Below are positions 28,192-43,203 of a DNA stretch of 64,000 nt, piece after piece. The stretch is from the NCBI RefSeq assembly GCF_013416325.1, contig NZ_JACCGK010000007.1, positions 1 to 64,000 of the forward strand, given 5' to 3'. This DNA comes from Vreelandella sedimenti (GTDB taxonomy: Bacteria; Pseudomonadota; Gammaproteobacteria; Pseudomonadales; Halomonadaceae). Each line of letters opens with the position of its first letter. Position 1 is the first letter of the stretch. Position numbers and translations under genes: made by a program. The notes under the pieces were generated by a model. The model saw only the letters and a program-made list of their open reading frames with translations, was not told the DNA's origin and did not search any database.

Positions 28192-29418
28192 ATGACTGCG
28201 TTTTCTCCCCTGCCCGTCACCGTGCTGTCGGGCTTTCTAGGTGCCGGTAAAACCACCGTCCTCAATCATATTCTCGCCAACCGTGAAGGCCGCCGGGTGG
28301 CGGTGATTATTAACGATATGAGTGAGGTGAATATCGACGGTGCACTGGTGCGCGGTGGCCCTGGTGAGTCGACGCTGGATGGCGATGTTGCATTGAACCG
28401 ATCAGAAGAGCGCTTGGTAGAGATGAGTAACGGCTGCATCTGCTGCACATTGCGCGAAGACTTGCTGGAAGAAGTCAGCCAGTTGGCCCGAGAGGGCAAG
28501 TTCGATTACCTGGTCATTGAGTCCACCGGGATCTCCGAACCCCTTCCCGTGGCAGAAACCTTCACCTTTGCAGATGAAAGCGGCCAGAGCCTCTCCCACG
28601 TCGCCCGGCTGGATACGCTAGTGACCGTAGTGGATGGCGCCAACTTTCTTGAACAGTACCGCGAAGCGCAAAGCCTCGCTGAAGCGGGCGAAAGTTTAGG
28701 CGAAGACGACGAGCGCAATGTCGCCGACCTGCTGGTCGATCAAATCGAGTTTTGCGACGTGCTGTTGATCAGCAAAACGGACCTGATCAGTGCGAAAGAG
28801 TTGGAGGTGCTGAAGGCTATTCTGCTCTCGCTGAACCCCGACGCGGAACTGGTGCCGATCGCTCAAGGCGGCGTGCCACTCGATAAAGTACTGGATACCG
28901 GCAAGTTCAATTTCGAGCGCGCCCAGCTGGCACCGGGCTGGCTAAAAGAGATGCGCGGAGAGCATGTGCCAGAGACCGAAGAGTACGGGATTGGCAGCTT
29001 TGCTTATCATGCCCGTCGTCCCTTCCATCCGCAGAAATTCCACGACTTGCTCAACCAGGAGTGGTTCGGAAAAGGCTTATTACGCTCGAAGGGCTTCTTC
29101 TGGCTGGCTACTCGCCCACAGGCCGCTGGTCAGTGGAGCCAGGCAGGCGGCATCGCCCACCACGGCCCAGCAGGCGTGTTCTGGAAGGCAATTCCCGAAG
29201 AACGCTGGCCAACGGATCCTGAAACGCGTCAGTTTATTATGGAGAAGTGGCAGGAGCCGTTCGGGGATATGCGCCAGGAACTGGTCTTTATCGGCCAGAA
29301 CCTGGATCAACCGCGGATGCACGCAGCGTTGGACGCCTGCCTTTTGAGCGAAGACGAGCTTGTGGAAGGCATAGAGGCGTGGAAACAGCTACCCGACCCC
29401 TTCCCTGCCTGGGAGTAA
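28192..29418 (+). CDS. COG0523/CobW-family GTPase, putative zinc metallochaperone
   Basis: A 408-residue G3E GTPase. The Walker A motif GFLGAGKTT is at residues 14-22, the metal-binding GCICC motif at 81-85, [11 protein letters not shown] near 110 and the guanine-specificity SKTD near 194. A C-terminal CobW domain starts near 260. Members under Zur control (ZigA, YeiR, ZagA types) deliver zinc to client enzymes when zinc is scarce. The Zur-like box just upstream supports a zinc rather than a cobalamin role, and no cobalamin synthesis gene is nearby. The first 13 residues precede the P-loop directly, as usual. Confidence 0.88.
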
Positions 29419-29512: not shown

Positions 29513-30826
29513 TTACTGCAACATGCTGGGCAACCAAGTCGCCAAGCTTGGGAACACGATCAGTACCGCGACCAGCAGCATCGAACAGAGGATATAGGGA
29601 ATCGCCGCCGAGTATATTTCTCTCATGGTAGTACCCGCGGGCGCGACACCTTTCATCACAAAAAGCAGCAGTCCTAACGGTGGCGTTGAGAAACTGATTT
29701 CCAGAGCCAATAAAACCACAATACCGAACCACACTAGATCAAACCCCAGCGCCTGGGCGAGTGGGAAAAAGATCGGCACGGTCAGCATCATGATAGAGAT
29801 CTGTTCCATAAAGGTGCCCAGCACCAGTAGCACCGCAAACATCGCCAAAAGCATCAGAATCGGCGACAGATCAAAACTGGTCGCCCAGCCGATCAAGCCA
29901 CCCGAAGCGCCAGAGAAGCCGAGCAACTGACTGAAGGTAGCCGAGCCAAACACGATCAGGTAGGCCATCAGCGTGACTTTTAATGCCCCGGTGACCGAAA
30001 GGTTAAACGCCTCCCAGGTCATGCAGCGGAAAATAAACGCCAGGATAATCACACCTAGCGCGCCAAAGGCTGCAGCCTCTGACGGCGTGGCAAACCCAAT
30101 CAGCATTAGTGTGACGATAATCACCATCACGCTGAGCATGGGTAGAATATCGGTCACGATCAGTTTGAGCTTCGCGCTCAGCGGCACCGGCTCAAGCTCA
30201 TAATTCGGGGCGGCCTGAGGATCCAGCTTGGTCTGAATAAAAATGGTCGCGATATAGAACCCCGCCAGCGTTAGCCCCGGCAATATACCGGCGATAAGCA
30301 GCGCGCCAATATCCACTTTTGCCAAGGTTGCTAACAGCACTGCCAGCGCAGAAGGCGGAATAATAATCGCCAGACCGCCGGTACCCAGAATCGGGCCAAT
30401 CGCCATTTTCTTTTTATAGCCCCGCCGCTCCATTTCTGGGACCAGTAGCGAACCCATTAATGCCGTAGAGCCCATGGAGGAGCCACTTAGAGTGGAGAAC
30501 GCCGTCCCACCCACCACTGTTACGTAAGATAAACGCCCCGGCACCTTGCCCATTAGCTGGTCAATAGCGTTGAACATTTTCATGCCTAGACCAGTGCGGA
30601 AAAACAGCTCGCCCATCAACAGAAAGAGCGGAATGGGCACCAAATTAAAACTGGATAGTGCGCCGAAACCGTTGTTGAGCATCTGCAAGATGCCGGTTTG
30701 GCCACCCATAAAGTGCCAGGCACCGATCACATTGGCGGCCAAAAAGGCCAGGGCAATGGGGGTGCCAATCGCCATAAAGATCAAAATCAACGAGAGTAGG
30801 AAAGCGAGCGCAAAGTACCATTCCAT
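29513..30826 (-). CDS. TRAP transporter large permease subunit (DctM type)
   Basis: A 437-residue inner-membrane protein with about 12 hydrophobic segments, the ion-coupled translocating subunit of a tripartite ATP-independent periplasmic transporter. Family segments include FLLMGELFFRTGLG near residue 67, GGTAFSTLSGSSMGSTALMG near 105 and GTGGLAIIIPPSALAVLLAT near 147. It overlaps the small-subunit gene by one base (TAATG). The substrate is probably an organic acid connected to the neighbouring leuCD-lyase cluster; this is inferred from position and a shared strand. Confidence 0.93.
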   Translation of the reverse strand: MEWYFALAFLLSLILIFMAIGTPIALAFLAANVIGAWHFMGGQTGILQMLNNGFGALSSFNLVPIPLFLLMGELFFRTGLGMKMFNAIDQLMGKVPGRLSYVTVVGGTAFSTLSGSSMGSTALMGSLLVPEMERRGYKKKMAIGPILGTGGLAIIIPPSALAVLLATLAKVDIGALLIAGILPGLTLAGFYIATIFIQTKLDPQAAPNYELEPVPLSAKLKLIVTDILPMLSVMVIIVTLMLIGFATPSEAAAFGALGVIILAFIFRCMTWEAFNLSVTGALKVTLMAYLIVFGSATFSQLLGFSGASGGLIGWATSFDLSPILMLLAMFAVLLVLGTFMEQISIMMLTVPIFFPLAQALGFDLVWFGIVVLLALEISFSTPPLGLLLFVMKGVAPAGTTMREIYSAAIPYILCSMLLVAVLIVFPSLATWLPSMLQ

Positions 30827-31332
30827 TATTCTTTAATCCCCGCTTCGCCGCTGTGAAGAATTTCATGGCCCACCACAAAGCGGCCAAATTCGATCGCCAT
30901 CAGGGAAAAGCTGATGGGGAAGACGATGGTTAGTATCCATTTCGGCACAAAGAAAGCCCGCACGTCATAGTCAGTGCGCTCGATATTGAGCAGCACCAGA
31001 TCAAGCCCCTTCCACGCCAGCACGCCGCACACCACGACACAGAGTAGCGACACCCCACGGCTGAGGATATTCAGCGCTGCTGGTGGCAACACCGAGGTCA
31101 GCAGCTCGATATGCACATGCCCTTTTTGGCGCACCAGCCAGGGAGCTCCGAGCAGAGTGAGGTAGAACATGGCGTATTCGGTGGAGAGGAAAAACCACGC
31201 AGAAGGCTGAAGGCCTAAGTTACGAATCACCACCGAAAGCACCACGGCCACCATCAGCCAGACCAGCATGATGGCGGCCAGCAGGGCCATGCCGTTGAGC
31301 AGCAGCAGATAGCCGCGTTGTGCGTAGCGCAT
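30826..31332 (-). CDS. TRAP transporter small permease subunit (DctQ type)
   Basis: A 168-residue protein with four membrane helices (about residues 9-32, 45-65, 84-106 and 128-150). It has the family pattern WFFLSTEYAMFYLTLLGAPWLVRQKGHVHIELL near 45-77, in which the EYAMFY and RQKGHV segments are typical. It pairs with the large permease gene, which it overlaps by one base. The solute-binding gene lies upstream across a hairpin. Confidence 0.9.
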   Translation of the reverse strand: MRYAQRGYLLLLNGMALLAAIMLVWLMVAVVLSVVIRNLGLQPSAWFFLSTEYAMFYLTLLGAPWLVRQKGHVHIELLTSVLPPAALNILSRGVSLLCVVVCGVLAWKGLDLVLLNIERTDYDVRAFFVPKWILTIVFPISFSLMAIEFGRFVVGHEILHSGEAGIKE

Positions 31333-31362
31333 AAAAAAACCCTAGAAAATAAGCCACACAAA

Positions 31363-31390
31363 TAGGGCGCTCGATCGCTCGGCGCCCCTA
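31363..31390 (-). terminator. hairpin between solute-binding and permease genes, possible attenuator
   Basis: TAGGGCGC (31363-31370) pairs imperfectly with GCGCCCCTA (31382-31390), with one bulged base, around an 11-base loop. It lies in the 63-base gap downstream of the solute-binding gene. Such hairpins often lower expression of permease genes relative to the binding protein. An A run at 31332-31338 reads as U on the minus strand but lies about 24 bases beyond the stem. Confidence 0.4.
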
Positions 31391-31395
31391 CGTTT

Positions 31396-32394
31396 CTATA
31401 GATCGTTGAATTTTTCGATCAGCGTATCGTAGTGCTCAAGCCCCATGGGGTGGCGCTCCATCTGGCCGCGCATACGTTCCCAGGTGGCATCCCGGGCAGC
31501 GTCTGAGAAGCGCTGTGCTGCTTCGCCTTCCAGGGTGATGACCTGCATGCCATCGGCCTCAAGCTGAGCCTGTTGCTCCTTGGCTAATTCAGCCAGTTGT
31601 TCGGCGCTATCGCGCTCATGCTCAATGGCGACTTCCTGAAGAATTTGCTGCGACTCTTCGCTGAGTTGGTTCCACTTATCCAGGTTAACGATCACCCCCA
31701 TATCGGTAGAGAAGAAGGCAGGGTCAACCCGGTAGTTAAGAAAACGATCCCAATTGAGGTCTTTCAGGCCAATTTGAGTCCAGCCGGTCGCATTCACCAC
31801 ACCCCGCTCCAGGGCCGCGTAAACATCGGTGGTCGGCAGGCTGATTGGCTGTGCGCCCAGGTAGTCCTGGAAGAAGGCGTCATACACCGGGTTACTGCGT
31901 AGGCGAAGGCCCGAAACGTTTAGATTACCTTCGCCATCGACGCTGGGCCCATCAATGGTGTAGAAGTTGTAGCTGACCCCGCTGTCGAACCAGCCCAGAT
32001 AGTAGGTGCCCATCTTCTCCTGATGAATTTCATTAAGCAGGTCGATACCGCCATTTTCGCGTGCGTAGATGGCATTAGTGTTCGAGGCAACCATGGCATC
32101 GCGCTCTGGTACGGTGCCTGCGTAGAAGCTCGCTGCGGTGTAGGCCATATCCACCACGCCGTTGCGCACTGCGTCGGGCTGCTCGGAAAGGCCAATCACT
32201 TCAGGGCCGCCGCGTACGTTAATTTGCACCACACCTTCACCGCGTTCGTTCACCTTATCGACGAACTCTAAAAAGCTCTGGGTATAGATCAACGAGGGGG
32301 GAAACGCATGCACTGCGTTAATTTGATCAACGGCCAGCACTTGAGTGGAAGCCAGGGCAGTTAGCACGCCCAGGGTAAGGGTTACTTTTTTCAT
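31396..32394 (-). CDS. TRAP transporter solute-binding protein (DctP type)
   Basis: A 332-residue periplasmic binding protein. The signal peptide MKKVTLTLGVLTALASTQVLA is cleaved after residue 21. The mature part has the TRAP pattern, with the carboxylate-clamping arginine in SGLRLRSNPVYDAFF near residue 170 and the family segment LPTTDVYAALERGVVNATG near 190. Substrates of this family are mostly carboxylates. CAGGAGAC lies 5 to 8 bases before the start codon. It is on the same strand as leuCD, 145 bases downstream of leuD with no terminator in between. It may belong to the same GntR-controlled transcript or have its own promoter. Confidence 0.93.
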   Translation of the reverse strand: MKKVTLTLGVLTALASTQVLAVDQINAVHAFPPSLIYTQSFLEFVDKVNERGEGVVQINVRGGPEVIGLSEQPDAVRNGVVDMAYTAASFYAGTVPERDAMVASNTNAIYARENGGIDLLNEIHQEKMGTYYLGWFDSGVSYNFYTIDGPSVDGEGNLNVSGLRLRSNPVYDAFFQDYLGAQPISLPTTDVYAALERGVVNATGWTQIGLKDLNWDRFLNYRVDPAFFSTDMGVIVNLDKWNQLSEESQQILQEVAIEHERDSAEQLAELAKEQQAQLEADGMQVITLEGEAAQRFSDAARDATWERMRGQMERHPMGLEHYDTLIEKFNDL

Positions 32395-32539
32395 TAGTTT
32401 GTCTCCTGCACAAGATAATTTGCGTTATAGCGTTTTTTGTTTCTAAACCGTTTTTATAAGCTGCTGTTTATTAACCCTTCTTATAAACGTCTGCTGCAAA
32501 CGTGCGTGCTGTTGTTAGCAATATACTTCCAGGCCGTTT

Positions 32540-33178
32540 CTACCCCTTGCTGATAAGGGTACTCTCTGGCGGCTGAGCCGCTGTCCAGGGGAACTGTGCC
32601 GTGTACTGTGCTGAGAAATCGGTAATGGTGTCGGCATGCTGGCGAGTCATATCGATATCATCCCAACCGTTAAGCAGCTTGGTGCGCCAAACGGGGCTAA
32701 TTGAAAAGCTGACTTCTACTTCGGCGACACGGATAGCCTGCTTGTCTAAGTCAACGTGTATCGCTGCCGGCGCATCGCCAAGCGCTGATAACAAACGCTC
32801 GGCGTCATCCTCTTCCACCATCGCAGGCAGTAAGCCATTATTGACGGCGTTAGAAGCAAAAATATCGCCAAAGCTCGGCGCCACCACACAGCGGAAGCCA
32901 TAATCAACCAGCGCATAAACGGCTGCCTCACGGGATGACCCCGCTCCGAAGTTCCGGCGGCTAACCATTACTTCAGCATCCCCCGCGCCGGGACGATGAA
33001 GAATGAAACTTGCGTCCGGTGTGCCCTGCTCGTCGTGGCGAACGTCATAAAGTAAAAACTGACCGTAGCCGACGCTGCGCGGCTCTTTCATAAAGCGCGC
33101 GGGAATCAACTGATCGGTATCCACGTTAGCCGCGGCAAGGGCAACGCCAAGGGTGTCTAGGACGGTAATCGGTTGCAT
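32540..33178 (-). CDS. leuD: LeuD-type hydratase small subunit (3-isopropylmalate dehydratase family)
   Basis: A 212-residue aconitase-family swivel domain. The start VANVDTDQLIPARFMKEPR near residue 17 and the segment RRNFGAGSSREAAVYALVDYGFR near 75 hold the conserved GSSRE loop. By family it forms a heterodimer with LeuC and isomerises isopropylmalate. Here no leuB or leuA is adjacent. The neighbours are a GntR regulator, a C-C lyase and a TRAP importer, so a catabolic hydratase for another maleate- or citraconate-like acid (as in DmdAB of nicotinate fermenters) should be considered. It overlaps leuC by one base. Confidence 0.85.
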   Translation of the reverse strand: MQPITVLDTLGVALAAANVDTDQLIPARFMKEPRSVGYGQFLLYDVRHDEQGTPDASFILHRPGAGDAEVMVSRRNFGAGSSREAAVYALVDYGFRCVVAPSFGDIFASNAVNNGLLPAMVEEDDAERLLSALGDAPAAIHVDLDKQAIRVAEVEVSFSISPVWRTKLLNGWDDIDMTRQHADTITDFSAQYTAQFPWTAAQPPESTLISKG

Positions 33179-34617
33179 TAGTGCGCTCCTGAAGCCTGAA
33201 CGGATGAATCAGCGCCCGCTGTTAACGTACGCACATCGGCTAGCCGCCCACTCACCGCCGCTGCGGCCACCATGGCGGGTGACATCAGATGAGTGCGTGC
33301 GCCTGGCCCTTGGCGGCCCTTGAAGTTGCGATTGGTGGTCGAGGCGCAGCGCTCGCCGCTGGCCACTAAATCACCGTTCATGCCTACGCACATAGAGCAG
33401 CCCGAGTGTCGCCACTCAAGCCCTGCGTCGATAAAGATACGGTCTAACCCTTCGGCTTCGGCCTGTGTTTTCACTTGCGTTGAGCCGGGAGATACCATGC
33501 CCGGCACACGACTTTTTTGCCCTGCCAGCACTGCTGCGGCAGCGCGCAAGTCTTCAATACGCGCGTTGGTACAAGAGCCAATAAACACCCGATCAATGTT
33601 GATATCAGTGAGCTTTTGCCCCGCCGTTAGTCCCATATAGGCCAAGCTATCCCGAGCCTGGCGAGCTTTCGCGGGATCGTTCAGTTGCTCAGGGTCGGGC
33701 ACAGCGCGATCAATCGGCAGTGCCTCTTCAGGCGAGACACCCCAGGTCACCGTCGGCGCGATTTCGTCCGCATGCAGCGTCACTTCAAGATCAAAACGGG
33801 CGCCTGGGTCGCTGTAGAGCGTGGCCCAATAGGTGCAGGCTTGCTCGAAGGCTCTCCCTTTCGGACTCCAGGGGCGGTCACGCAGATAGTCGAAGGTGGT
33901 TTGGTCTGGAGCAATCATGCCGCAGCGGCCGCCGCCTTCAATGGAGAGATTACACAGCGTGAGACGCGCTTCCATGGAGAGCGAGCGGATCGCCTCGCCA
34001 GCGTACTCAATGGCATAACCCCGTGCGCCGTCGGCGCCTAGCCGCGCAATCCAGGTCAGCGCAATATCTTTGGCGGTGATGCCCTCGGCCAGTTGGCCCT
34101 CGACAGTAATCCGCATCACCTTGGGTTTGCTTTGCCACAAGGTTTGCGTGGCCAGCACGTGGGCCACTTCCGAGGCGCCAATGCCAAAGGCAATGCTGCC
34201 AAAGGCGCCATGGGTGGCGGTATGGCTATCGCCGCACACCATCACCATGCCGGGCTGAGTGAGTCCCTGCTCGGGCCCTAGCACATGCACAATGCCCTGA
34301 CGCGGGTCATCGAGACCAAACAGCGTCACCCCATGCCGCTGGGTATTGTGGGAGAGCAGCTCAATCATCGAGCGCACTTTGGGGTCGGCAACACCTGCCA
34401 AGTCGCGAGTCAGCGTTGGTACGTAGTGGTCAGCAATACCAAAGGTTAAATCGGGCCGTGCAACGGGCAACTGGCGTTCAGCCAACTTATTGAACGCGTG
34501 GAAGGAGCCTTCGTGGACAAAGTGGCGGTCAATCCACAACAGGCTCTGACCGCTTTCACTGCGGTGAACCTCGTGGGCTCGCCAAACTTTGTCAAACAGC
34601 GTTGTTGGGGTACTCAT
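33178..34617 (-). CDS. leuC: LeuC-type hydratase large subunit (3-isopropylmalate dehydratase family)
   Basis: A 479-residue aconitase-family protein binding a [4Fe-4S] cluster. Cluster cysteines are in FIGSCTNARIEDL (near residue 347) and HSGCSMCVGMNGD (near 407). The VCGDSHTATHGAFGSIAFGIGASEVAHVLATQ region near 130 is typical of LeuC. Sequence alone says LeuC. Context (no leuA/leuB, a flanking HutC-type operator, an isocitrate-lyase family gene in the divergent arm) leaves open that this pair hydrates another substituted maleate in a catabolic path. A genome-wide check for a second leuCD set would decide. Confidence 0.88.
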   Translation of the reverse strand: MSTPTTLFDKVWRAHEVHRSESGQSLLWIDRHFVHEGSFHAFNKLAERQLPVARPDLTFGIADHYVPTLTRDLAGVADPKVRSMIELLSHNTQRHGVTLFGLDDPRQGIVHVLGPEQGLTQPGMVMVCGDSHTATHGAFGSIAFGIGASEVAHVLATQTLWQSKPKVMRITVEGQLAEGITAKDIALTWIARLGADGARGYAIEYAGEAIRSLSMEARLTLCNLSIEGGGRCGMIAPDQTTFDYLRDRPWSPKGRAFEQACTYWATLYSDPGARFDLEVTLHADEIAPTVTWGVSPEEALPIDRAVPDPEQLNDPAKARQARDSLAYMGLTAGQKLTDINIDRVFIGSCTNARIEDLRAAAAVLAGQKSRVPGMVSPGSTQVKTQAEAEGLDRIFIDAGLEWRHSGCSMCVGMNGDLVASGERCASTTNRNFKGRQGPGARTHLMSPAMVAAAAVSGRLADVRTLTAGADSSVQASGAH

Positions 34618-34723
34618 GGTCGTCGCTCGTTGCCTCAGCCTTCGTTGGACTTATCATTCTCACCCAATACAACTAGCGCAATTCCACAACACAGGTCAAA
34701 TGTATTTTTTGTAATTTTAAATC

Positions 34724-34741
34724 TGTATTAAATTTAATACA
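34724..34741. promoter_or_regulatory. GntR/HutC-type operator upstream of leuC
   Basis: TGTATTAAATTTAATACA is a perfect 18-base palindrome in the gap between the GntR gene and leuC. The same pattern TGTATTA-N4-TAATACA recurs at 35643-35660 in front of the lyase operon, and nowhere else in the cluster that I found. A degenerate half, TGTATT, lies at 34701-34706. The pair strongly suggests a shared repressor, most simply the GntR protein encoded between them. Confidence 0.7.
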
Positions 34742-34762
34742 TTAAAAAACAACTCAATTACA

Positions 34763-35569
34763 CTACTCAGCCTTCCCGCTGGTCGGCACTCCACCCACCT
34801 TGGGCTCCCAGTAGCGGGAGTTACCGTCACCGTTACGCTCCAGGTCAATTTGAAAGCGATAACGATCAGGACGATAGAGCGCATCCAAGTGCTCGACGCC
34901 TCGGCCCTGCTCATCAAACACCACGCGGGTAAGTGAAATCAGCGGCGAGCCAACGGCAACATCCAGCGCTTCCGCGACCTCATGACTGGCCAGAGTGGCG
35001 GAAATCGATTGGGAAGCGTGATCAACTTTCACGCCGCTACGCTCCAGTAGTACAAACAGCGGCGTATTGGCTAAATCCATCTCGTTGTAGTGCAGGGCAA
35101 TCGCTTCCGGTACATGGGTCACCAGGTGGGAAAATGGCTTATCGTCGACCATGCGGACACGCACCGAGCGTTGCACCTTACCGCCTTGCCCCATACCCAG
35201 CCGCTCACGAATCATTTCCGGCGGCAGCACATAGGCAAACTCCAGCAGCCGCACCTGGGAAGCCTGGCTCATCTTGACCATATTAGGCATTAGGTTCGAG
35301 ACGCTGGCGGTCATCACCGTGGCGTCCAACGGCTGCTCCAACACCACTGTGCCCACGCCTGCTTTCCGCTCTACCAATCCTGTAGTTTGCAGCGCCTCCA
35401 TCGCACGTCGAACGGTGACGCGTGACACGCCATGCTGCTCTGCCAGTTTATTTTCGCCTGGCAGTTTACTGCCCGCTGGCAGCCGCCCACTCAAAATAGC
35501 GTCTTTCAACAGCAGGTAGATGCGGTGTGATTTGGTGCCGCCCACCGCGGAGGGTTGTGCCTCACTCAT
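34763..35569 (-). CDS. GntR-family regulator, HutC subfamily (UTRA domain)
   Basis: A 268-residue transcription factor. The N-terminal winged helix-turn-helix (about 15-80) contains PGENKLAEQHGVSRVTVRRAMEAL. A UTRA effector-binding domain fills about 100-250, with YVLPPEMIRERLGMGQGGKVQRSVRVR near 113. It is placed between the leuCD-TRAP arm and the lyase operon, and each side has a matching palindrome. Most HutC proteins are repressors released by a pathway metabolite; that mode is inferred here. GAGAGGC lies 5 bases before the start. Confidence 0.9.
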   Translation of the reverse strand: MSEAQPSAVGGTKSHRIYLLLKDAILSGRLPAGSKLPGENKLAEQHGVSRVTVRRAMEALQTTGLVERKAGVGTVVLEQPLDATVMTASVSNLMPNMVKMSQASQVRLLEFAYVLPPEMIRERLGMGQGGKVQRSVRVRMVDDKPFSHLVTHVPEAIALHYNEMDLANTPLFVLLERSGVKVDHASQSISATLASHEVAEALDVAVGSPLISLTRVVFDEQGRGVEHLDALYRPDRYRFQIDLERNGDGNSRYWEPKVGGVPTSGKAE

Positions 35570-35641
35570 CCACGCCTCTCTTTAGAAAATGGTTAAAAAA
35601 TTCAAATCTGGCTTGACGTAGGGATAATAATAGACATAAAA

Positions 35642-35661
35642 ATGTATTATATATAATACAT
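35642..35661. promoter_or_regulatory. GntR/HutC-type operator upstream of the lyase operon
   Basis: ATGTATTATATATAATACAT is a perfect 20-base palindrome in the 226-base divergent gap between the GntR gene and the lyase gene. Its core matches the one at 34724-34741 in 16 of 18 positions. A TTGACA at 35663-35668 starts two bases after it and could be the -35 box of the rightward promoter, though no good -10 follows at the right distance. The TATAAT inside the palindrome could serve either direction. Confidence 0.7.
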
Positions 35662-35795
35662 ATTGACAGCTAATCAATAACACAACTGCTGCTGCCCCTT
35701 GAGAGCCATTATTACAGAACCAGTGCCCTTAAGTATCACTAACTGGGTGGCCTCATAGTCGCCGCTGACGCTTACTTAAAATAGATGAGATCGCT

Positions 35796-36713
35796 ATGTC
35801 ACGCTCACACCGCTCTTCAAACCAGGCTTCACAGCAAGTTTCACAACAGTCCGGCCAGCTTAGACAGCAACTGAAAGATAGCTCCATTGTGGTCGCCCCC
35901 GGTGTGTTTGATGCGTTAGGCGCATCCCTAGCTGAGCAAGCGGGCTTCGATACGGCCTACCTTTCCGGCGCCAGCCTGGCCTATACCCAGCTTGGGCGAC
36001 CGGATATTGGCCTGCTCAGCATTACTGAAATTTGCACCGCCATGTCGCATATTCGTGAGCGCACCAACTTATCCGTGGTCGTGGATTGCGATACCGGCTT
36101 TGGCAATGCCATGAATGTGATGCGCAGCGTTAGACTGCTGGAGCGCGCTGGCGCAAACGCCATTCAGCTTGAGGATCAAACCTACCCCAAGCGCTGCGGC
36201 CACTTGCGCGGTAAAACCCTGGTCTCCAAAAGCGAAATGGTCGGTAAGTTGCATGCCGCACTGGACGCCCGTGAAAATGACAACACGCTTATTATTGGCC
36301 GAACCGATGCGCTGGGGGTGGAAGGCACCGACAGCGCCATTGAGCGTGCCCAAGCCTATTATGAAGCTGGCGTGGATATGCTGTTTATCGAAGGTATCCG
36401 TAGTGACGAAGATATCAGCAAAATCATGACCCAGTTTAAAGGCAAGGTGCCCATCATGGCCAATATGGTCGAGGGGGGTGACACGCCGCTGCAGAACGCT
36501 CAGGCGCTTGAAGACCTAGGCTTCTCGCTGGTGATTTTCCCCGGCGCACTGGTGCGGGCGATTACCCATATGGCCAGCCGTTTCTTCGCCACACTTAAGC
36601 AGGATGGCACCACCGATGCCTTCCGCGACCAAATGCTCGATTTCAAACAGCTTAACGACTATTTAGGCACCCAGGCGATGCTGGAGCTCGGCGAGCAGTA
36701 CGACAATCGCTAG
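35796..36713 (+). CDS. isocitrate lyase/PEP mutase family carbon-carbon lyase
   Basis: A 305-residue beta-barrel enzyme of the ICL/PEPM superfamily. The catalytic loop reads KRCGH (132-136) with cysteine C134, as in 2-methylisocitrate lyase and 2,3-dimethylmalate lyase and unlike PEP mutase. Metal-site acids are in VVDCDTGFG near 95-103 and LEDQ near 125. The expected reaction is reversible cleavage of a 2-hydroxy di- or tricarboxylate to pyruvate or glyoxylate plus an acid. It heads a five-gene plus-strand operon and has a GntR-type operator in front. The first 20 residues are glutamine- and serine-rich and look dispensable. The exact substrate is not assignable. Confidence 0.87.
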   Translation: MSRSHRSSNQASQQVSQQSGQLRQQLKDSSIVVAPGVFDALGASLAEQAGFDTAYLSGASLAYTQLGRPDIGLLSITEICTAMSHIRERTNLSVVVDCDTGFGNAMNVMRSVRLLERAGANAIQLEDQTYPKRCGHLRGKTLVSKSEMVGKLHAALDARENDNTLIIGRTDALGVEGTDSAIERAQAYYEAGVDMLFIEGIRSDEDISKIMTQFKGKVPIMANMVEGGDTPLQNAQALEDLGFSLVIFPGALVRAITHMASRFFATLKQDGTTDAFRDQMLDFKQLNDYLGTQAMLELGEQYDNR

Positions 36714-36777
36714 CGCCTCTCATCAAACCGTGCCCAATATTTATAAGTGCGAATAAATAACTATTCAGGAGACGACG

Positions 36778-37443
36778 ATGCAGACCACCGACAAAACGGC
36801 GAAAGAGATTTTTAACGACGTAATGGCCAACCCTCAGCGGGTACCCTTTGGCTTTGGCAAGAAAGCGGTGCTGGTGAATGTCGACCCACAAAAGGCTTAT
36901 ACCCGCACCGATCTCTTCAAAACCGCCTATGAAACCGACCCCAAGCAGTTGGAGTACACCAACCAATTGGTCCGCGGTTTTCGGGAGAAAGGCTGGCCGG
37001 TGGTTTGGACCCATGTGGCGTTTCTAGACTCCGCCGAAGACGCCGGGGTTTGGGGTACGCGTACCGATACGCCCGATTCGCTGCAAAACATTAAGTATGG
37101 CTCTGAGCGCGCCGAATTCGACGAACGCTGTGAAATCGATCACAGCCGAGATGTGATCTACACCAAGCGCATGCCCTCGGCGTTTTTTGAAACCCCGCTG
37201 CAATCGCTTTTAGTGTGGCATCAGGTCGATACGGTGATCATTACTGGCGGCTCTACCTCTGGCTGCATTCGCGCCACCGCCGTGGAGAGCCTTTCCCGGG
37301 GCTACCGCACCATCGTGCCCATGGAGTGCGTCGCGGATAAGCACGAAAGCTACCACTACGCCAACCTGACCGACCTGCATCTCAAGTATGCCGACGTTCT
37401 GCCAGTTGCCAATGTACTCGAATGGCTGAATGGCAACGCCTAA
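36778..37443 (+). CDS. isochorismatase-like amidohydrolase (N-carbamoylsarcosine/maleamate amidase group)
   Basis: A 221-residue cysteine hydrolase. The catalytic triad is visible as D36 (LVNVDPQKAY), K130 (YTKRMPSAFF) and C163 (GGSTSGCIRAT), with the cis-peptide glycine-rich GGSTSG before the cysteine. Closest groups by pattern are N-carbamoylsarcosine amidase and maleamate amidase, which release ammonia from small linear amides. It sits between the lyase and two cyclic-amidase-like genes, so it may hydrolyse the half-amide they produce. CAGGAGAC lies 4 to 7 bases before the ATG. Confidence 0.87.
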   Translation: MQTTDKTAKEIFNDVMANPQRVPFGFGKKAVLVNVDPQKAYTRTDLFKTAYETDPKQLEYTNQLVRGFREKGWPVVWTHVAFLDSAEDAGVWGTRTDTPDSLQNIKYGSERAEFDERCEIDHSRDVIYTKRMPSAFFETPLQSLLVWHQVDTVIITGGSTSGCIRATAVESLSRGYRTIVPMECVADKHESYHYANLTDLHLKYADVLPVANVLEWLNGNA

Positions 37444-37471
37444 GGCCTACCAAGTTTCAAAGGAGCCGGTT

Positions 37472-38425
37472 ATGAAAGAGTCACTAGGCGTTTACGACTA
37501 CTGGGCCTACGACCAACGCCCTAAAATCGAGTGGCCAGGGGGCGCCAAGGTGGCCTTCTGGGTCGCACCCAATATCGAGTATTACGAACTCGACCCACCG
37601 CTGAACCCGCAGCGTAACCCTTGGCCGCATCCGCACCCTTCGGTGCCCGGCTACAGCATTCGCGACTACGGCAACCGGGTTGGCCACCAGCGCCAGATGG
37701 CTCTGCTGGATAAGTACGGCATTCGCGGCTCGGTGTCGCTGTCGGTGGCGCTGTGCGAGCACCACCCCGAGATTATCCAGATGTGCAAAGAGCGCGACTG
37801 GGAGTTTTTCAGCCACGGTATCTACAACACCCGCTACACCTATGGGTTGAGCGAAGCCCAGGAGCGGACAATGATCCGTGACAGCATGGAAACCATTCAT
37901 CGCCATACCGGCCAGGCTTGTGCAGGTTATCTGGCGCCCGCGCTCTCCCACTCAGAGCGCACTCTGGATCTATTTGCCGAAGTGGGCGAAGAGTTATTCG
38001 GTGACAAAGGAGGGATTTACACCTGTGATCTCTTCCACGATGACCAACCGACGCCGGTCAGCGTTCGCTCCGGCAAACGTTTTATCTCCATGCCTTACTC
38101 GCTGGAGATGAACGACACCATCGTCTACGCGGTGAATAAAGTAGAGCCGCGCCAGTACGCCACCATGCTCAAGCGCCACTTTGACCGTCTGTATGCCGAG
38201 GGCGCGGAGTCCGGCACGGTGATGTGCATTCCCACTCACAACTATCAGGTGAGCTGCCCGCATCGTATCAAGGCGTTTGAAGAGGCGCTGGAGTACATCA
38301 CCGACCACCCGGATGTGTGGGTCGCTACCGGGCGCGAGATTGCCGACTACTACTTGGCCAACTATTACGATGCCGCCCTCGACAGTATTGCGGCCCAGGC
38401 CGCCACCGCAGGCAAACAGGGGTAA
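37472..38425 (+). CDS. polysaccharide-deacetylase-fold hydrolase, PuuE-related (first copy)
   Basis: A 317-residue protein of the NodB/PuuE fold. It has YSIRDYGNRVGHQRQMALLDKYGIR near residue 67, EFFSHGIYNTRY near 112 (metal-binding histidine) and APALSHSERTLDLFAEVGE near 151. PuuE-type members open cyclic amides such as allantoin, and cyclic imide hydrolases belong to the same group. The start is set at 37472, where AAGGAG lies 6 bases upstream; the longer frame begins inside the previous gene. The second copy follows 4 bases downstream. The catalytic segments differ between the two (HDDQP and THNYQVSCPHR here), so they probably act on different substrates or form a heteromer. Confidence 0.83.
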   Translation: MKESLGVYDYWAYDQRPKIEWPGGAKVAFWVAPNIEYYELDPPLNPQRNPWPHPHPSVPGYSIRDYGNRVGHQRQMALLDKYGIRGSVSLSVALCEHHPEIIQMCKERDWEFFSHGIYNTRYTYGLSEAQERTMIRDSMETIHRHTGQACAGYLAPALSHSERTLDLFAEVGEELFGDKGGIYTCDLFHDDQPTPVSVRSGKRFISMPYSLEMNDTIVYAVNKVEPRQYATMLKRHFDRLYAEGAESGTVMCIPTHNYQVSCPHRIKAFEEALEYITDHPDVWVATGREIADYYLANYYDAALDSIAAQAATAGKQG

Positions 38426-38429
38426 CGCT

Positions 38430-39377
38430 ATGACGCTTAACGACGACTATCTCGACTACCCCCGCCGCCACCACGGCTACGATCACAAGCGCTATGAATG
38501 GTCGATGCTGAGCGAACGCGCTCCGGTCACCTGGCCTGAAGGCAAAAGCCTGGCGGTGTGGGTCAATATTTCGCTGCAGTTTTACCCGTTAAACCAGCGC
38601 GGCAAGCCGTTTAAAGTACCTAACGGCATGACAATGCCTTACCCGGACTTGCGCCACTTCTCACTGCGGGATTACGGCAACCGCGTGGGGATATATCGGG
38701 TGCTCAAAGCTCTGGCGGCGCACAACATCACGCCCACTTTTGCAATCAACGCCCAGCTCGCGGAGCAAACGCCCTATCTGGTGCAGCGCCTGAAAGAGCA
38801 CGGCGGTGAATTTATCGCCCACGGCTGGAACATGGATCATCTGCACTACGGCGGCCAGCCAATCGAAGAGGAGGCCGAGCTGGTCAAACGCTCTGTTGAC
38901 ACTCTGCGTCGGGTGACCGGTCAACCCGTTCGCGGCTGGCTGAGCCCCGCCAAGCACCAGAGCTTCAAGACCCCTGACCTGCTGGCCGACAATGGCATCG
39001 AGTACTGCGCCGACTGGGTGAACGACGATATGCCCTATCGATGCTTCACACAAACAGGCCACACCCAAGCGGGCAACCTGACCATGATGCCCTTGGCTAC
39101 AGAGATCGAAGATCAGTTCGTGATGAGCCAAAACCTGCACTCGGAAGATTCGTGGGTGACACAGGTAAAAGACGCCTTCGATTTCCTGCTGGAAGAGTCA
39201 CGCGAACAAGGCGGGCGGCTGTTTGCGCTGAACCTGCACCCCTGGTTGGTGGGCCAGCCCCACCGCATTGCCTGCCTGGAAGAAGTGCTGGCCCATATCA
39301 GCGGGCATCCAGAAGTGTGGCAGGCACCGGCGGGCGAGATTCTGGATGCCTTTCACCATGCAACGGAGCAGGCGTAA
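38430..39377 (+). CDS. polysaccharide-deacetylase-fold hydrolase, PuuE-related (second copy)
   Basis: A 315-residue paralogue of the preceding gene product and the closer match to PuuE allantoinase. It has HFSLRDYGNRVGIYRVLKAL near residue 74, FIAHGWNMDHLHY near 127, the NDDMPY motif near 207 and LHPWLVGQPHR near 270. Expected chemistry is metal-assisted ring opening of a cyclic amide or imide. The frame is open 51 codons further upstream, but the ATG at 38430 lies 4 bases after the previous stop and fits the homologous N-terminus. The flavoprotein gene overlaps its stop codon by one base. Confidence 0.84.
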   Translation: MTLNDDYLDYPRRHHGYDHKRYEWSMLSERAPVTWPEGKSLAVWVNISLQFYPLNQRGKPFKVPNGMTMPYPDLRHFSLRDYGNRVGIYRVLKALAAHNITPTFAINAQLAEQTPYLVQRLKEHGGEFIAHGWNMDHLHYGGQPIEEEAELVKRSVDTLRRVTGQPVRGWLSPAKHQSFKTPDLLADNGIEYCADWVNDDMPYRCFTQTGHTQAGNLTMMPLATEIEDQFVMSQNLHSEDSWVTQVKDAFDFLLEESREQGGRLFALNLHPWLVGQPHRIACLEEVLAHISGHPEVWQAPAGEILDAFHHATEQA

Positions 39378-40798
39378 TGGCGATACTCCCTTATACTCAT
39401 GATCGCCTTGATGCCCATTTACCTCTGCTAATTATCGGCGCGGGGGCCTGCGGGTTAGTGGCAGCGTTAGCGGCCCAGGAGGCGGGTGTTGAGCTGGCAG
39501 TGCTGGAGCGCGACGCACTGCCTCGCGGCAGCACGGCGATGTCGTCGGGCTTTATTCCCGCCGCCAATACGCGCTTTCAGCATGAACTAGGGGTCAGCGA
39601 TTCCGCTGAGGCCATGGCTGAGGATATTCAAAAGAAGAATGGCTTTGAGGCAGACCCGGCCATTGTCGAACTACTTGCTACTCAATCAGGCCAAACCATC
39701 GAGTGGTTGGCGGATCAGCACGGCGTGCCTTTTGAGCTGGTAGAGGGCTTTCTCTACCCCGGCCACCGCCACCTGCGCATGCATGCTACGCCACGACGAA
39801 CCGGTGAAGAGCTCATGGGGGCGCTGCTCAATGCCGCCGAAGCGGCAGGCATTGATATTTTGACCCAGGCGCGAGTAGTGGATTTGCACGTTGATGATAC
39901 TCAGCGAGTGCGAGGCGTAACCCTTGAGCGCCCGGATGGCAGTCGCGAAAGCGTTGGCTGCGACGCGCTGATTCTGGCCTGCAACGGCTATGGCGGTAAC
40001 GTAGAGCTGGTGGAGCGCTACCTGCCGACACTCAAACACGCGCTCTACTACGGCCATGAGGGAAACCAGGGCGATGCTCTGCTATGGGGCCAGGCCATGG
40101 GTGCCAGCACTAAGGATTTGGGTGCCTGCCAGGGGCACGGTTCACTGGCAACACCCCATCAGGTCTTGATCAGTTGGGCGCTGATGATGCAGGGCGGCAT
40201 TCAGGTCAATCTAAACGGCAAGCGATTTTCTAATGAGCATGGGGGCTACTCCGAGCAGGCGGCCAAAGTCTTGGCCCAGCCGGAGAAAATTGCCTGGAAT
40301 CTTTATGACGCCCGTATTCATGAATCCGCACAGGCGTTTGAAGATTACCGTAATGCCCAGGAGAGCGGCGCGTTGCGCAGCTTTGCCAGCATTGAAGAGA
40401 TAGCGGCTGGTTTGAATCTGCCGCTAACAGCGCTGCAGGCTACCTTTGCGGAGATGCAGCAGCATGCCAAACAGCAAACGGTAGATACCTTTGGTCGCCG
40501 TTTTGAACCCGCCAACCTCCTCAAAGCTCCCTACTACGCCATTCGTGTCACGGGTGCGCTGTTTCACACCCAGGGCGGTTTAGAGGTCAACACCGCTGCA
40601 CGGGTACTCAATACTCAGGGGCAGGCGCTACCCAACCTGTTTGCCGCAGGCGGTGCCGCCCGCGGTGTTTCGGGCTCCAACGACAGCGGCTATCTTTCTG
40701 GCAACGGCCTGCTTAGCGCCGTGGTGCTGGGTGCCGTAGCGGGTAAAAGTGCCGCGGAGTTGCTGCACTTAAAGTTAAGCTCAGCGGCACTCCCTTGA
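39377..40798 (+). CDS. FAD-dependent oxidoreductase (fumarate reductase/KSTD flavoprotein type)
   Basis: A 473-residue FAD_binding_2 protein. The dinucleotide motif GAGACG is at 21-26 (LLIIGAGACGLVAALAA) with the ribose-binding acid in VLERD. The C-terminal FAD segment NLFAAGGAARGVSGSN near residue 420 is followed by LSGNGLLSAVVLGAVAG. The YYAIRVTGALFHTQGGL segment near 378 is the usual substrate-domain closure. Members oxidise CH-CH to C=C or the reverse (succinate, tricarballylate, steroids). In this operon it could desaturate an alkyl succinate to feed the LeuCD-type hydratase. GGAG lies 8 bases before the ATG at 39377. Confidence 0.85.
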   Translation: MAILPYTHDRLDAHLPLLIIGAGACGLVAALAAQEAGVELAVLERDALPRGSTAMSSGFIPAANTRFQHELGVSDSAEAMAEDIQKKNGFEADPAIVELLATQSGQTIEWLADQHGVPFELVEGFLYPGHRHLRMHATPRRTGEELMGALLNAAEAAGIDILTQARVVDLHVDDTQRVRGVTLERPDGSRESVGCDALILACNGYGGNVELVERYLPTLKHALYYGHEGNQGDALLWGQAMGASTKDLGACQGHGSLATPHQVLISWALMMQGGIQVNLNGKRFSNEHGGYSEQAAKVLAQPEKIAWNLYDARIHESAQAFEDYRNAQESGALRSFASIEEIAAGLNLPLTALQATFAEMQQHAKQQTVDTFGRRFEPANLLKAPYYAIRVTGALFHTQGGLEVNTAARVLNTQGQALPNLFAAGGAARGVSGSNDSGYLSGNGLLSAVVLGAVAGKSAAELLHLKLSSAALP

Positions 40799-40880: not shown

Positions 40881-41804
40881 CTAGCCAACTATTTTGAGGC
40901 TTTCGAAAATTTTCTGCTCGACTAACGCGATCAACTCAGCATTGATGTTGTTGATGGCGGGTTCAAGATCTTTTTCCAGCGGCAAAATAATTTGAAAGTC
41001 ATAACGAATATCAAACGCGAGCGGGCGAACCACCACGCCCACTCGCTTTGCATCACAGGCCGATACGGCGTTTAACACGGCAAGACCGGCACCGTTAGCT
41101 ACTAGTCGGATCGCCATCTCCCCCAGCGAGACTGTCCATATTTTTTTGGGCGAAACGGCATGTTTCCTCAGTCGCTGAGTAATCCGATTACGGCTTTGCT
41201 CATTAGGCTCACCACAAATCAGCGTTTCATTGGCGAAATCTTCAATGTTAATAAGCGCTTTAGCTTCCAGCGGATGCCCTGGCGGAATCAAGCACATGCC
41301 AGGTAGAGAGTACTGAAAGCTCTGGTAGCGCGGATCGATTCGAGTATCGGTGGTAATGCCAAAATCGAAGCGCTGGGCCACCATTTCCTCCGCTATCTGG
41401 CTGGATCGGTAGGAGTAGAGACTAATTTCAAGGTCGGGAAACTGCTCGGCAAGCAGCGTAGCGGCATCTGGCACCAGGCTCATGGCAAAAGACGGCATGC
41501 TGACCACTCTCAATTGGCCTGCCGCTCTCTCTTTTAGCCGTTCGGCAAACTGACGCAAATGCTGTAAGCCAATATAAACCCGCTCCACCTCGTCATAAAA
41601 AAGCGTGCCACGCCGGGTCGGCAGTAGGCGATTATTGTGGCGTTCGAACAGATCAAATCCAAGCCGCGCCTCCAACTGTTTTATCAAACGGCTAATCGCC
41701 GGTTGTGAAATCAGCATCTTACTGGCTGCTTCCGTAGCGCTACTGGTTTTCATAATCCACATGAAGGCTTCTATCTGGCTGTCCGTAAATCCTCGATAAG
41801 CCAT
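40881..41804 (-). CDS. LysR-family transcriptional regulator
   Basis: A 307-residue LysR protein. The winged helix-turn-helix is at about 5-65 (SSATEAASKMLISQPAISRL, then IKQLEARLGFDLFERHNNRL). The effector domain runs from about 92 to 300. It is divergent from the M20 amidohydrolase-AbgT pair with a 158-base gap and most likely controls it. The inducer is unknown. Its 3' end faces the flavoprotein operon, so it is unlikely to be part of that regulon. Confidence 0.88.
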   Translation of the reverse strand: MAYRGFTDSQIEAFMWIMKTSSATEAASKMLISQPAISRLIKQLEARLGFDLFERHNNRLLPTRRGTLFYDEVERVYIGLQHLRQFAERLKERAAGQLRVVSMPSFAMSLVPDAATLLAEQFPDLEISLYSYRSSQIAEEMVAQRFDFGITTDTRIDPRYQSFQYSLPGMCLIPPGHPLEAKALINIEDFANETLICGEPNEQSRNRITQRLRKHAVSPKKIWTVSLGEMAIRLVANGAGLAVLNAVSACDAKRVGVVVRPLAFDIRYDFQIILPLEKDLEPAINNINAELIALVEQKIFESLKIVG

Positions 41805-41962
41805 AACATTTCGTCATCCTTCGATAAGCAAAAATCAATATATCTGACTAAAAAAGCCAGTATACAGTTAAAGGTAGCTAAAAGACTTCGTCCCAACACT
41901 CAAAGCATAATATTTAGCTATAGCTTAAGTGCTATCGTTTCAAGAAACCTAAAGGGCTACCT

Positions 41963-43144: not shown

Positions 43145-43203
43145 GCAGTTCAAGAAAGCACACTTCAATAAACAGCACTTCCAGATATAAAGCGGAGAAC
43201 AAC

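What the first reader, a model, noticed from the sequence alone, without database searches (positions are those of the whole stretch)
29513..40798. Possible undescribed catabolic route for a cyclic imide or amide: hydrolases, amidase, flavoprotein, LeuCD-type hydratase, C-C lyase and TRAP importer under one regulator
Seen: TRAP transporter, leuC/leuD-type pair, GntR/HutC regulator, ICL/PEPM-family lyase with KRCGH, isochorismatase-like amidase with D-K-C triad, two PuuE-type hydrolases and a fumarate-reductase-like flavoprotein, sharing one operator motif. Known: PuuE-type enzymes open cyclic amides, isochorismatase-like enzymes cut small linear amides, and in nicotinate fermenters an aconitase-family hydratase (DmdAB) and an ICL-family lyase (Dml) convert dimethylmaleate to pyruvate and propionate. 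Inference: ring opening, deamidation, desaturation, hydration and cleavage could form one path for an alkyl succinimide/maleimide or similar compound. No published pathway with this gene set is known to me.
Basis: partly seen in the sequence, partly recalled or inferred. Interest (0 to 1): 0.8.

Follow-up and report, generated by a model that had tools for sequence, protein, structure and literature searches.

The report
Cyclic-imide breakdown gene cluster
A set of eleven neighbouring genes under one switch, found in many marine and soil bacteria, looks like a complete and so far undescribed route for opening a nitrogen-containing ring (a cyclic imide) and cutting what remains into ordinary food molecules; a possible natural source is the pyrrole debris left by chlorophyll and haem, but the substrate is not proven.

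Summary
Two perfect 18-bp palindromes flank the regulator; no other perfect copy exists in the 5.06-Mb genome, and both sites recur in 29 of 32 related full clusters. The genome has separate leuC-leuD-leuB and prpB, so the cluster's LeuCD and lyase are extra, altered copies. The arms co-occur: among 390 genomes of the order, all 9 with this lyase carry the PuuE core. Elsewhere that core is joined by unrelated enzymes for single steps (another hydratase subfamily; HMG-CoA-lyase- or RipC-like lyases), supporting one route: ring opening, deamidation, hydration, C-C cleavage. One claim fails: the flavoprotein lacks the dicarboxylate-binding arginines of fumarate reductase in 38 of 38 distinct sequences. 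Unexpectedly, glutaryl-CoA dehydrogenase, sometimes with a glutarate-CoA-transferase-like gene, lies beside the cluster in several different arrangements. This points to glutarate as a product, hence to haematinic acid, the carboxyethyl-methyl-maleimide from haem and chlorophyll. That step is inference; no substrate was tested. No account of this gene set turned up in the open-licence papers searched.

The parts
29513..30826 (-). dctM, TRAP transporter large permease
   Evidence: ORF, named by sight; dctM in 34 of 80 related loci, next to dctQ, dctP and leuD in the full clusters
30826..31332 (-). dctQ, TRAP transporter small permease
   Evidence: ORF, named by sight; conserved order
31396..32394 (-). 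dctP, TRAP solute-binding protein
   Evidence: Pfam DctP 5.6e-30; NCBIfam TRAP_S1 over cut-off
32540..33178 (-). LeuD-type small subunit of an aconitase-family hydratase
   Evidence: TIGR00171 over cut-off; 35% identical to the genome's own LeuD; SREAAVYAL where own housekeeping LeuD has SREHAPWAL
33178..34617 (-). LeuC-type large subunit of an aconitase-family hydratase
   Evidence: TIGR00170 and PRK12466 over cut-off; three cluster-binding cysteines in 55 of 55 distinct sequences; 53% identical to own housekeeping LeuC
34724..34741 (.). operator 1, perfect 18-bp palindrome upstream of leuC
34763..35569 (-). GntR/HutC-family (UTRA) regulator
   Evidence: Pfam GntR and UTRA
35643..35660 (.). 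operator 2, perfect 18-bp palindrome between the divergent gntR and lyase
35796..36713 (+). ICL/PEP-mutase-family C-C lyase, methylisocitrate-lyase-like but not PrpB
   Evidence: prpB model 296 bits against cut-off 354; KRCGH; EGG where own PrpB has EFG
36778..37443 (+). isochorismatase-like amidase, D36-K130-C163
   Evidence: Pfam; triad in 88 of 88 distinct sequences
37430..38425 (+). PuuE-type cyclic amide/imide hydrolase, first paralogue (likely start near 37472)
   Evidence: E50, H129 and H270 in 85 of 85 distinct sequences
38430..39377 (+). PuuE-type second paralogue
   Evidence: present in 80 of 80 loci; Q at the position of E50 in 70 of 86 distinct sequences
39377..40798 (+). FAD_binding_2 flavoprotein, fumarate-reductase fold with a different active site

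Best explanation
The cluster is a one-regulator catabolic regulon for a carbon-substituted, five-membered cyclic imide of the maleimide/succinimide type. The TRAP transporter imports it or an acidic relative. The PuuE pair opens the ring to a half-amide. The isochorismatase-like enzyme removes ammonia, giving a substituted maleate. The LeuCD-like enzyme adds water, giving a substituted malate. The ICL-family lyase cuts this between C2 and C3 into a 2-oxo acid and a carboxylate. The flavoprotein probably interconverts the saturated and unsaturated ring, not the free diacid. The GntR/HutC protein controls (probably represses) both arms from two operators. Shown by sequence: gene content, synteny, operator sites, active-site residues, non-redundancy with leuC-leuD-leuB and prpB. 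Inferred: every reaction, the order of steps and the substrate.
For: Single regulon: the only two perfect operators in the genome lie here; of 32 related full clusters, 29 have both sites (up to 3 mismatches), 2 one, 1 none. Co-occurrence in 390 genomes of the order: core (PuuE1 at 69% identity or more) in 24; lyase in 9, all 9 within the 24; flavoprotein in 9, 8 within the 24; LeuC in 11, 7 within the 24 (hypergeometric 2e-12, 5e-10, 4e-7, ignoring kinship). Replacement of single steps around the same core: LeuD/DmdB-type hydratase in L143 (Maribacter) and L038 (Burkholderia plantarii); HMG-CoA lyase with CoA-transferase in 14 of 80 loci, CitE type in 4 of 80, the one tested being closest to itaconate-route RipC, 244 bits, below cut-off 375. 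More distantly (PuuE1 at 39-48% identity), an asparaginase-family protein (248 bits, below cut-off 314) beside the PuuE pair in Arthrobacter pLDW-10 and an annotated amidase beside it in Agrobacterium. Precedent: HxnM, more than 60% identical to the Pseudomonas cyclic-imide hydrolase, belongs to the CE4_HpPgdA-like group, and HxnM is followed by the amidase HxnN (passages of PMC8478523 and PMC9304392).
Against: No biochemistry. PuuE1 is nearer to PuuE allantoinase (80 bits) than to the HpPgdA/imidase group (42 bits), so hydantoin-type substrates are not excluded. The amidase's best solved relatives include N-carbamoylsarcosine amidases. 32 of the 80 nearest loci show no LeuC-type hydratase within about 10 kb and 19 none of the tested downstream markers, some of them on short contigs, so the core may work without this lower part nearby. 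The Agrobacterium locus also has an isochorismatase-family gene about 8 kb away, so the amidase swap is not clean there. The flavoprotein's role is a guess.
Confidence: 0.6

Rival explanations
1. The core degrades a hydantoin or other cyclic ureide: PuuE-type enzymes open the ring as in allantoin and the isochorismatase-like enzyme cuts an N-carbamoyl product. LeuCD and lyase handle a separate acid.
For: PuuE allantoinase is the top solved relative of PuuE1 and third for PuuE2, after 3s6o and 1z7a; N-carbamoylsarcosine amidase is among the best hits of the amidase; hydantoinase/oxoprolinase genes lie close to the core in Salipiger and about 11 kb away in Acidiphilium.
Against: An N-carbamoyl amino acid gives no substrate for an aconitase-family hydratase plus a malate-type lyase, yet those are tied to the core by operator and by repeated recruitment. 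An asparaginase-like or other amidase as partner fits a half-amide better than a carbamoyl group.
Confidence: 0.15
2. The ring is a six-membered imide (glutarimide type, for instance from pyridines, as in the fungal HxnM/HxnN route) and gives glutarate directly.
For: HxnM/HxnN precedent; glutaryl-CoA dehydrogenase beside the core, with no hydratase or ICL-type lyase found in the locus, in L131, L136 and L140.
Against: An ICL-type lyase needs a carboxylate on the carbon next to the carbinol carbon, that is a malate backbone (established mechanism), and lyase, hydratase and glutaryl-CoA dehydrogenase genes occur together in L038, L047, L092, L099, L109, L111 and L130.
Confidence: 0.1
3. Two unrelated functions share a regulator: an amide-nitrogen scavenging arm and an alkylmalate or itaconate-like acid arm with the TRAP importer.
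For: The core occurs without LeuCD or lyase nearby in many loci.
Against: Both arms carry the same operator; lyase and flavoprotein lie on the same strand as the core with gaps of at most 64 bp, presumably co-transcribed; close lyase orthologues occur only in core-positive genomes, 9 of 9.
Confidence: 0.12

Closest known systems
Cyclic-imide metabolism: imidase plus half-amidase (Blastobacter, Pseudomonas putida YZ-26; recalled), and HxnM/HxnN of Aspergillus nidulans (PMC9304392, passages)
   Same: Hydrolytic opening of an imide by a CE4-fold enzyme followed by an amidase; genes clustered
   Different: Here a pair of PuuE-type proteins from another subgroup, an isochorismatase-like amidase, and a dedicated hydratase plus C-C lyase under one regulator
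Dimethylmaleate hydratase DmdAB and 2,3-dimethylmalate lyase Dml of nicotinate fermenters (recalled)
   Same: Aconitase-family hydratase followed by an ICL-family lyase on a substituted maleate/malate
   Different: The window's hydratase is of bacterial LeuCD type (LeuD/DmdB model below cut-off), and it is preceded here by ring-opening and deamidation enzymes. The lyase was not shown to be nearest to dimethylmalate lyase (3fa3 is row 12)
2-Methylcitrate cycle PrpB
   Same: Family and catalytic KRCGH; tertiary-alcohol malate-type substrate likely
   Different: 296 bits against cut-off 354; 35% identical to the genome's own PrpB; EGG in place of EFG near the substrate
PuuE allantoinase
   Same: Family; conserved E, H, H and DD positions in PuuE1
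   Different: TIGR03212 109 and 113 bits against cut-off 425; an unequal pair; none of the eleven genes belongs to a known ureide pathway
Maleamate amidohydrolase NicF / N-carbamoylsarcosine amidase
   Same: Isochorismatase fold, D-K-C triad
   Different: Modest similarity (68-90 bits); none of the eleven genes is a dihydroxypyridine enzyme. That 3ot4/3uao is NicF is recalled

Membership tests
3-isopropylmalate dehydratase (LeuCD) | Family score | tested here: met
   TIGR00170 664 bits (cut-off 560), TIGR00171 174 (cut-off 116)
3-isopropylmalate dehydratase (LeuCD) | Sole or leucine-operon copy | tested here: not met
   leuC, leuD and (by sight) leuB reading frames lie side by side in L001 on another contig
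3-isopropylmalate dehydratase (LeuCD) | Small-subunit loops as in own housekeeping LeuD (RTGFG, SREHAPWAL) | tested here: not met
   RSVGYG and SREAAVYAL in the window; the residue at H of SREH is A in 27, H in 10, Q in 4 of 41 distinct sequences
Methylisocitrate lyase PrpB | NCBIfam equivalog cut-off | tested here: not met
   296 against 354 bits; the genome's own PrpB 420 bits elsewhere
ICL/PEP-mutase superfamily lyase | K-[KR]-C-G-H catalytic motif | tested here: met
   K, C and H in 51 of 51 distinct sequences; second position R in 50, K in 7 of 57 rows
PuuE allantoinase | Equivalog cut-off | tested here: not met
   109 and 113 against 425 bits
Cyclic-imide hydrolase (CE4_HpPgdA-like group) | Closer to that group than to PuuE | tested here: not met
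   PuuE1: 3cl6 80 bits, 3qbu 42 bits; PuuE2: 85 and 44 bits. Works-like claim unaffected
Cyclic-imide hydrolase | Activity on imides | not testable with these tools
   needs enzyme assay
Fumarate reductase / succinate dehydrogenase flavoprotein | Substrate residues (Fcc3 E378, R381, R402, R544; numbering recalled, placed by motif) | tested here: not met
   W 38 of 38; M 36, L 1, T 1; Y 38 of 38; D 34, G/A/N/V 1 each, of 38 distinct sequences
Isochorismatase-like amidase | D-K-C triad | tested here: met
   88 of 88 distinct sequences
DmdAB/Dml route | LeuD/DmdB-type small subunit | tested here: not met
   73 against cut-off 109 bits in the window; met in L038 and L143

The most novel reading that the evidence does not exclude
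The pathway is the missing microbial route for haematinic acid (3-carboxyethyl-4-methyl-maleimide), the monopyrrole left when haem, bilins and chlorophyll are oxidised. Ring opening and deamidation give 2-methyl-cis-homoaconitate; the LeuCD-like (homoaconitase-related) enzyme gives 2-methyl-homoisocitrate; the methylisocitrate-lyase-like enzyme cuts it into pyruvate and glutarate, which glutarate CoA-transferase and glutaryl-CoA dehydrogenase finish. The flavoprotein would bring in the dihydro form from the reduced ring of chlorophyll. Loci with HMG-CoA-lyase- or RipC-like enzymes would do the same through CoA, giving pyruvate and glutaryl-CoA.
Probability: 0.3. Interest if true: 0.82.

Novelty: new variant of a known kind. 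Interest (0 to 1): 0.66.

Why it matters
If right, it adds a complete, widespread and regulated pathway for cyclic imides, assigns functions to proteins now annotated as polysaccharide deacetylase, isopropylmalate dehydratase and FAD-dependent oxidoreductase, and makes a testable link between environmental bacteria and the fate of pyrrole debris. Chlorophyll is made and broken down yearly on a 10^12 kg scale, and maleimides and haematinic acid are cited there as found in senescent leaves and lake sediments (PMC7318184, passages; in that study's own samples haematinic acid was found but maleimides were not). The swapping of non-homologous enzymes at single steps is itself a clear case of pathway convergence.

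Tried and rejected
Rejected: (1) flavoprotein as alkylsuccinate dehydrogenase, because the arginines are absent. (2) PuuE2 as a plain pseudoenzyme: it keeps H131 in 82 and H270 in 81 of 86 distinct sequences but has Q for E50 in 70, so a changed role is all I claim. (3) The LeuCD pair as the leucine enzyme. (4) A structure model of PuuE2 from one sequence: mean pLDDT 45, not used; no fold search was made. (5) Ranking the lyase as dimethylmalate lyase: 3fa3 is row 12 by sequence, and a search with a 56-residue piece did not display its alignment. (6) Rieske, cupin, nitrilase-like and PrpD-like neighbours in marine loci as clues to an upper pathway: suggestive only. (7) GcdH presence alone as a test: 20 of 24 core-positive but also 14 of 19 core-negative genomes have it, so only its position informs.

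Paper searches (PMC open-licence papers only). No paper met the terms: and 24 (the plasmid pJE1). Listings seen with nothing on this gene set: 20 of 344,960 shown; 20 of 32; 4 of 4; 10 of 588; 20 of 32; 1 of 1. So absence from print is only as strong as these. Papers: passages only of PMC8478523, PMC9304392, PMC3084791, PMC9227131, PMC7318184; all others only in search listings.

Row sets: the alignments (puuE1 94, puuE2 94, amidase 98, flavoprotein 40, lyase 57, leuC 60, leuD 46 rows) were filtered by score and length, include the window row, lack genes my simple ORF picker missed, and held duplicates where one contig was fetched twice; one search recounts distinct sequences.
Full report
Observation. 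The eleven genes are present at the stated coordinates (dctM and dctQ named by sight). The left arm (leuC, leuD, dctP, dctQ, dctM) and the regulator run on the minus strand, the right arm (lyase, amidase, puuE1, puuE2, flavoprotein) on the plus strand. The first PuuE gene more likely starts near 37472 than at 37430, since in the two congeners the reading frame begins there. Two perfect 18-bp palindromes lie upstream of leuC and between gntR and lyase. A genome-wide scan finds them as the only perfect matches in 5,057,830 bases; three other places have 2 mismatches. In the window at up to 3 mismatches there are 4 matches, against 0.99 expected. Of 32 related full clusters, 29 have a site with up to 3 mismatches in both of these gaps, 2 (L101, L141) only beside gntR, 1 (L098) none. 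This is direct evidence that both arms form one small regulon.

Redundancy test. The genome has another leuC on contig C16 with leuD and, by sight, leuB reading frames beside it. The cluster LeuC is 53% and LeuD 35% identical to those, and the LeuD loops differ. A true prpB lies on contig C10 at 420 bits; the cluster lyase scores 296 against a cut-off of 354 and is 35% identical to it. So neither is the housekeeping enzyme.

Co-occurrence. In 390 genomes of the order, the first PuuE protein at 69% identity or more occurs in 24. Six further genomes with weaker hits (33-46%) at E up to 1e-40 were dropped. Lyase orthologues (E up to 1e-90) occur in 9 genomes, all among the 24. Flavoprotein orthologues (E up to 1e-100) occur in 9, 8 among the 24; the ninth, G052, has a distant core at 35-44% identity. 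LeuC (E up to 1e-170) occurs in 11, 7 among the 24; the other four, in one small-genome family, may be ordinary LeuC. The complete cluster stands in 8 of these genomes including the window's own; in one, G073, leuC is split into two reading frames. Of these 80, 32 have all eight markers, 80 have puuE2, 79 the amidase, 48 a LeuC-type hydratase, 45 the ICL-type lyase, 44 a gntR, 35 the flavoprotein, and 19 none of the tested downstream markers; some loci are short contigs. Hosts of the core include Halomonas/Vreelandella, Billgrantia, Marinobacter, Saccharospirillum, Shewanella, Alteromonas, Maribacter and MAGs of Burkholderiales.

Convergent replacements. The same core is joined by different enzymes for the same step. 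Hydratase: the LeuC tree shows the window's clade, a Halieaceae/Alteromonadaceae clade, and a third group in Bacteroidota, Alkalimonas and Psychrosphaera; the own housekeeping LeuC branches nearer to the window's clade than the second group does (the tree warns of long branches, so I claim only distinct groups). In L143 (Maribacter) and L038 (Burkholderia plantarii) the small subunit is over the LeuD/DmdB cut-off. C-C lyase: ICL type; HMG-CoA-lyase type with a CaiB CoA-transferase, in Maribacter in one run of same-strand genes with hydratase, amidase and PuuE pair; or CitE type, the one tested being closest to the itaconate-route lyase RipC (244 bits, below its cut-off of 375). Amidase, in more distant loci: an asparaginase-family gene beside the PuuE pair and a molybdenum hydroxylase on an Arthrobacter crystallopoietes plasmid (248 bits, cut-off 314), or an annotated amidase on an Agrobacterium plasmid, where an isochorismatase-family gene also lies about 8 kb off. 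Such swaps keep the reaction type and change the protein, which is what a fixed reaction sequence predicts.

Active sites (distinct sequences). Amidase D36, K130, C163: 88 of 88. PuuE1 E50, H129, H270: 85 of 85. PuuE2 has Q at the E50 position in 70 of 86 and keeps the two histidines in 82 and 81. In HpPgdA the metal ligands are Asp14, His86, His90 (passage of PMC3084791). By motif, PuuE1 has N133 at the place of His90, so like PuuE it is probably metal-free; this mapping is inference. LeuC cysteines: 55 of 55. Lyase K, C, H of KRCGH: 51 of 51; EGG (E in 45, G in 50, G in 50 of 51) where the methylisocitrate lyases displayed and the own PrpB have EFG, and the petal death protein also has EGG. 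Flavoprotein: the positions of fumarate reductase E378, R381, R402, R544 (numbering recalled, placed by motif on the alignment) are W in 38 of 38, M in 36, Y in 38 and D in 34, with no arginine at any of them; both histidines are kept in 38 of 38. It is therefore not a dicarboxylate enzyme of the known kind.

Glutarate link. An acyl-CoA dehydrogenase found beside the core is glutaryl-CoA dehydrogenase by its solved relatives: 9 of the 10 rows are so named (619 bits to 3eom, 572 to 1sir), the top row only 'acyl-CoA dehydrogenase' (one protein tested, L140). NCBIfam has no model over its cut-off for it, and glutaryl-CoA dehydrogenase is only the fourth row. It lies in 8 of the 80 loci (three of them cut by the locus edge) and in L038 and L047 among the 19 other loci tested. 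A CaiB protein whose best model is succinate-glutarate CoA-transferase (three tested: 494-567 bits, cut-off 750, next best 297-318) lies with it in L038, L047, L130, L140 and, in Marinobacter, L188. Arrangements differ: divergent from the amidase gene in L130, L131, L136 and L140; the dehydrogenase-transferase pair ending within about 70 bp of the flavoprotein gene in L047; about 1 kb from dctM with a GntR-like gene (by sight) between in L188; on one plasmid strand with lyase, flavoprotein and hydratase, with electron-transfer flavoprotein genes between, in Burkholderia plantarii. In L188 an operator-like site with 2 mismatches lies between the transferase gene and a porin-like gene (5709-5726, by count; porin by sight); in L189 none was listed with fewer than 4 mismatches, and none lies directly before the dehydrogenase gene in either. 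For one gene copy in 4.2 Mb, 0.36 such loci of 80 would be expected by chance (rough, ignores kinship). Against it: in the window's own genome the gene lies on another contig and the operator does not occur there, 4 of 24 core-positive genomes lack the gene, and it is near the core in 2 of the 20 that have it (distances read).

Mechanism. A hydratase plus an ICL-type lyase demands a malate backbone, hence a five-membered imide. Glutarate as one half demands a carboxyethyl side chain. RipC- and HMG-CoA-lyase-like swaps suggest pyruvate as the other half, hence a methyl group on the carbinol carbon. Haematinic acid has exactly these groups, and its triacid is 2-methyl-cis-homoaconitate, a homologue of the substrates of homoaconitase and, after hydration, of methylisocitrate lyase. 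A TRAP importer, a class mostly for organic acids (recalled), agrees. Natural sources exist: haematinic acid and maleimides from chlorophyll (PMC7318184, passages), 2-ethyl-3-methylmaleimide in Spirulina extracts (PMC9227131, passages). This is inference; ethylmethylmaleimide, citraconimide and others remain open.

Known or not. Imidase plus amidase is known (HxnM/HxnN), and hydratase plus lyase on a substituted maleate is known (Dmd/Dml, recalled). Their union under one regulator was not found in the searches listed in Tried and rejected, which cover only open-licence PMC papers and, for four of them, only a capped part of the hits. I rate it a new variant of a known kind.

Noticed in passing
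L074, L045, L096 and others, between gntR and lyase: A small protein of about 130 aa with no Pfam match (L096 tested) sits between gntR and the lyase in many relatives (a family seen in 26 of the 115 loci clustered, duplicates included), but the window's gap is only 226 bases.
   Followed up: partly
L112, L111, L130, L137, L123, L143, L062: In marine relatives (Shewanella, Alkalimonas, Psychrosphaera, Kordiimonadaceae, Maribacter and others) the core is surrounded by recurrent families: Rieske oxygenase, ChrR-type cupin/DUF4437, DUF1838, nitrilase-like amidase, a methyltransferase with a 125-aa partner, weakly PrpD-like proteins. Possibly an upper pathway feeding the imide.
   Followed up: partly
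L104 7240-7551, L119 7249-7560: A HapK/REDY-like protein (Pfam PF11639, L119 tested) close to CitE-type lyase genes and the core.
   Followed up: no
L156 (Arthrobacter crystallopoietes pLDW-10): PuuE pair with a molybdenum hydroxylase, asparaginase-family protein, SRPBCC protein and acyl-CoA ligase; looks like an N-heterocycle pathway in an actinobacterium.
   Followed up: no
L188 5709-5726: Operator-like site (2 mismatches) before a porin-like gene next to the glutarate genes in Marinobacter; Burkholderia plantarii also has a porin in its cluster.
   Followed up: no
window 28192-29418: ZigA zinc metallochaperone GTPase over its cut-off, next to dctM in ten of the clustered loci.
   Followed up: no
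window 40881-44718: By sight, a LysR regulator, an M20-type amidohydrolase and an AbgT-like transporter follow the cluster. In the seven full-cluster loci the first two found no match except a 23% LysR hit in L044.
   Followed up: no
L044 12806-14244: LeuC of one close relative (G073) is split into two reading frames.
   Followed up: no
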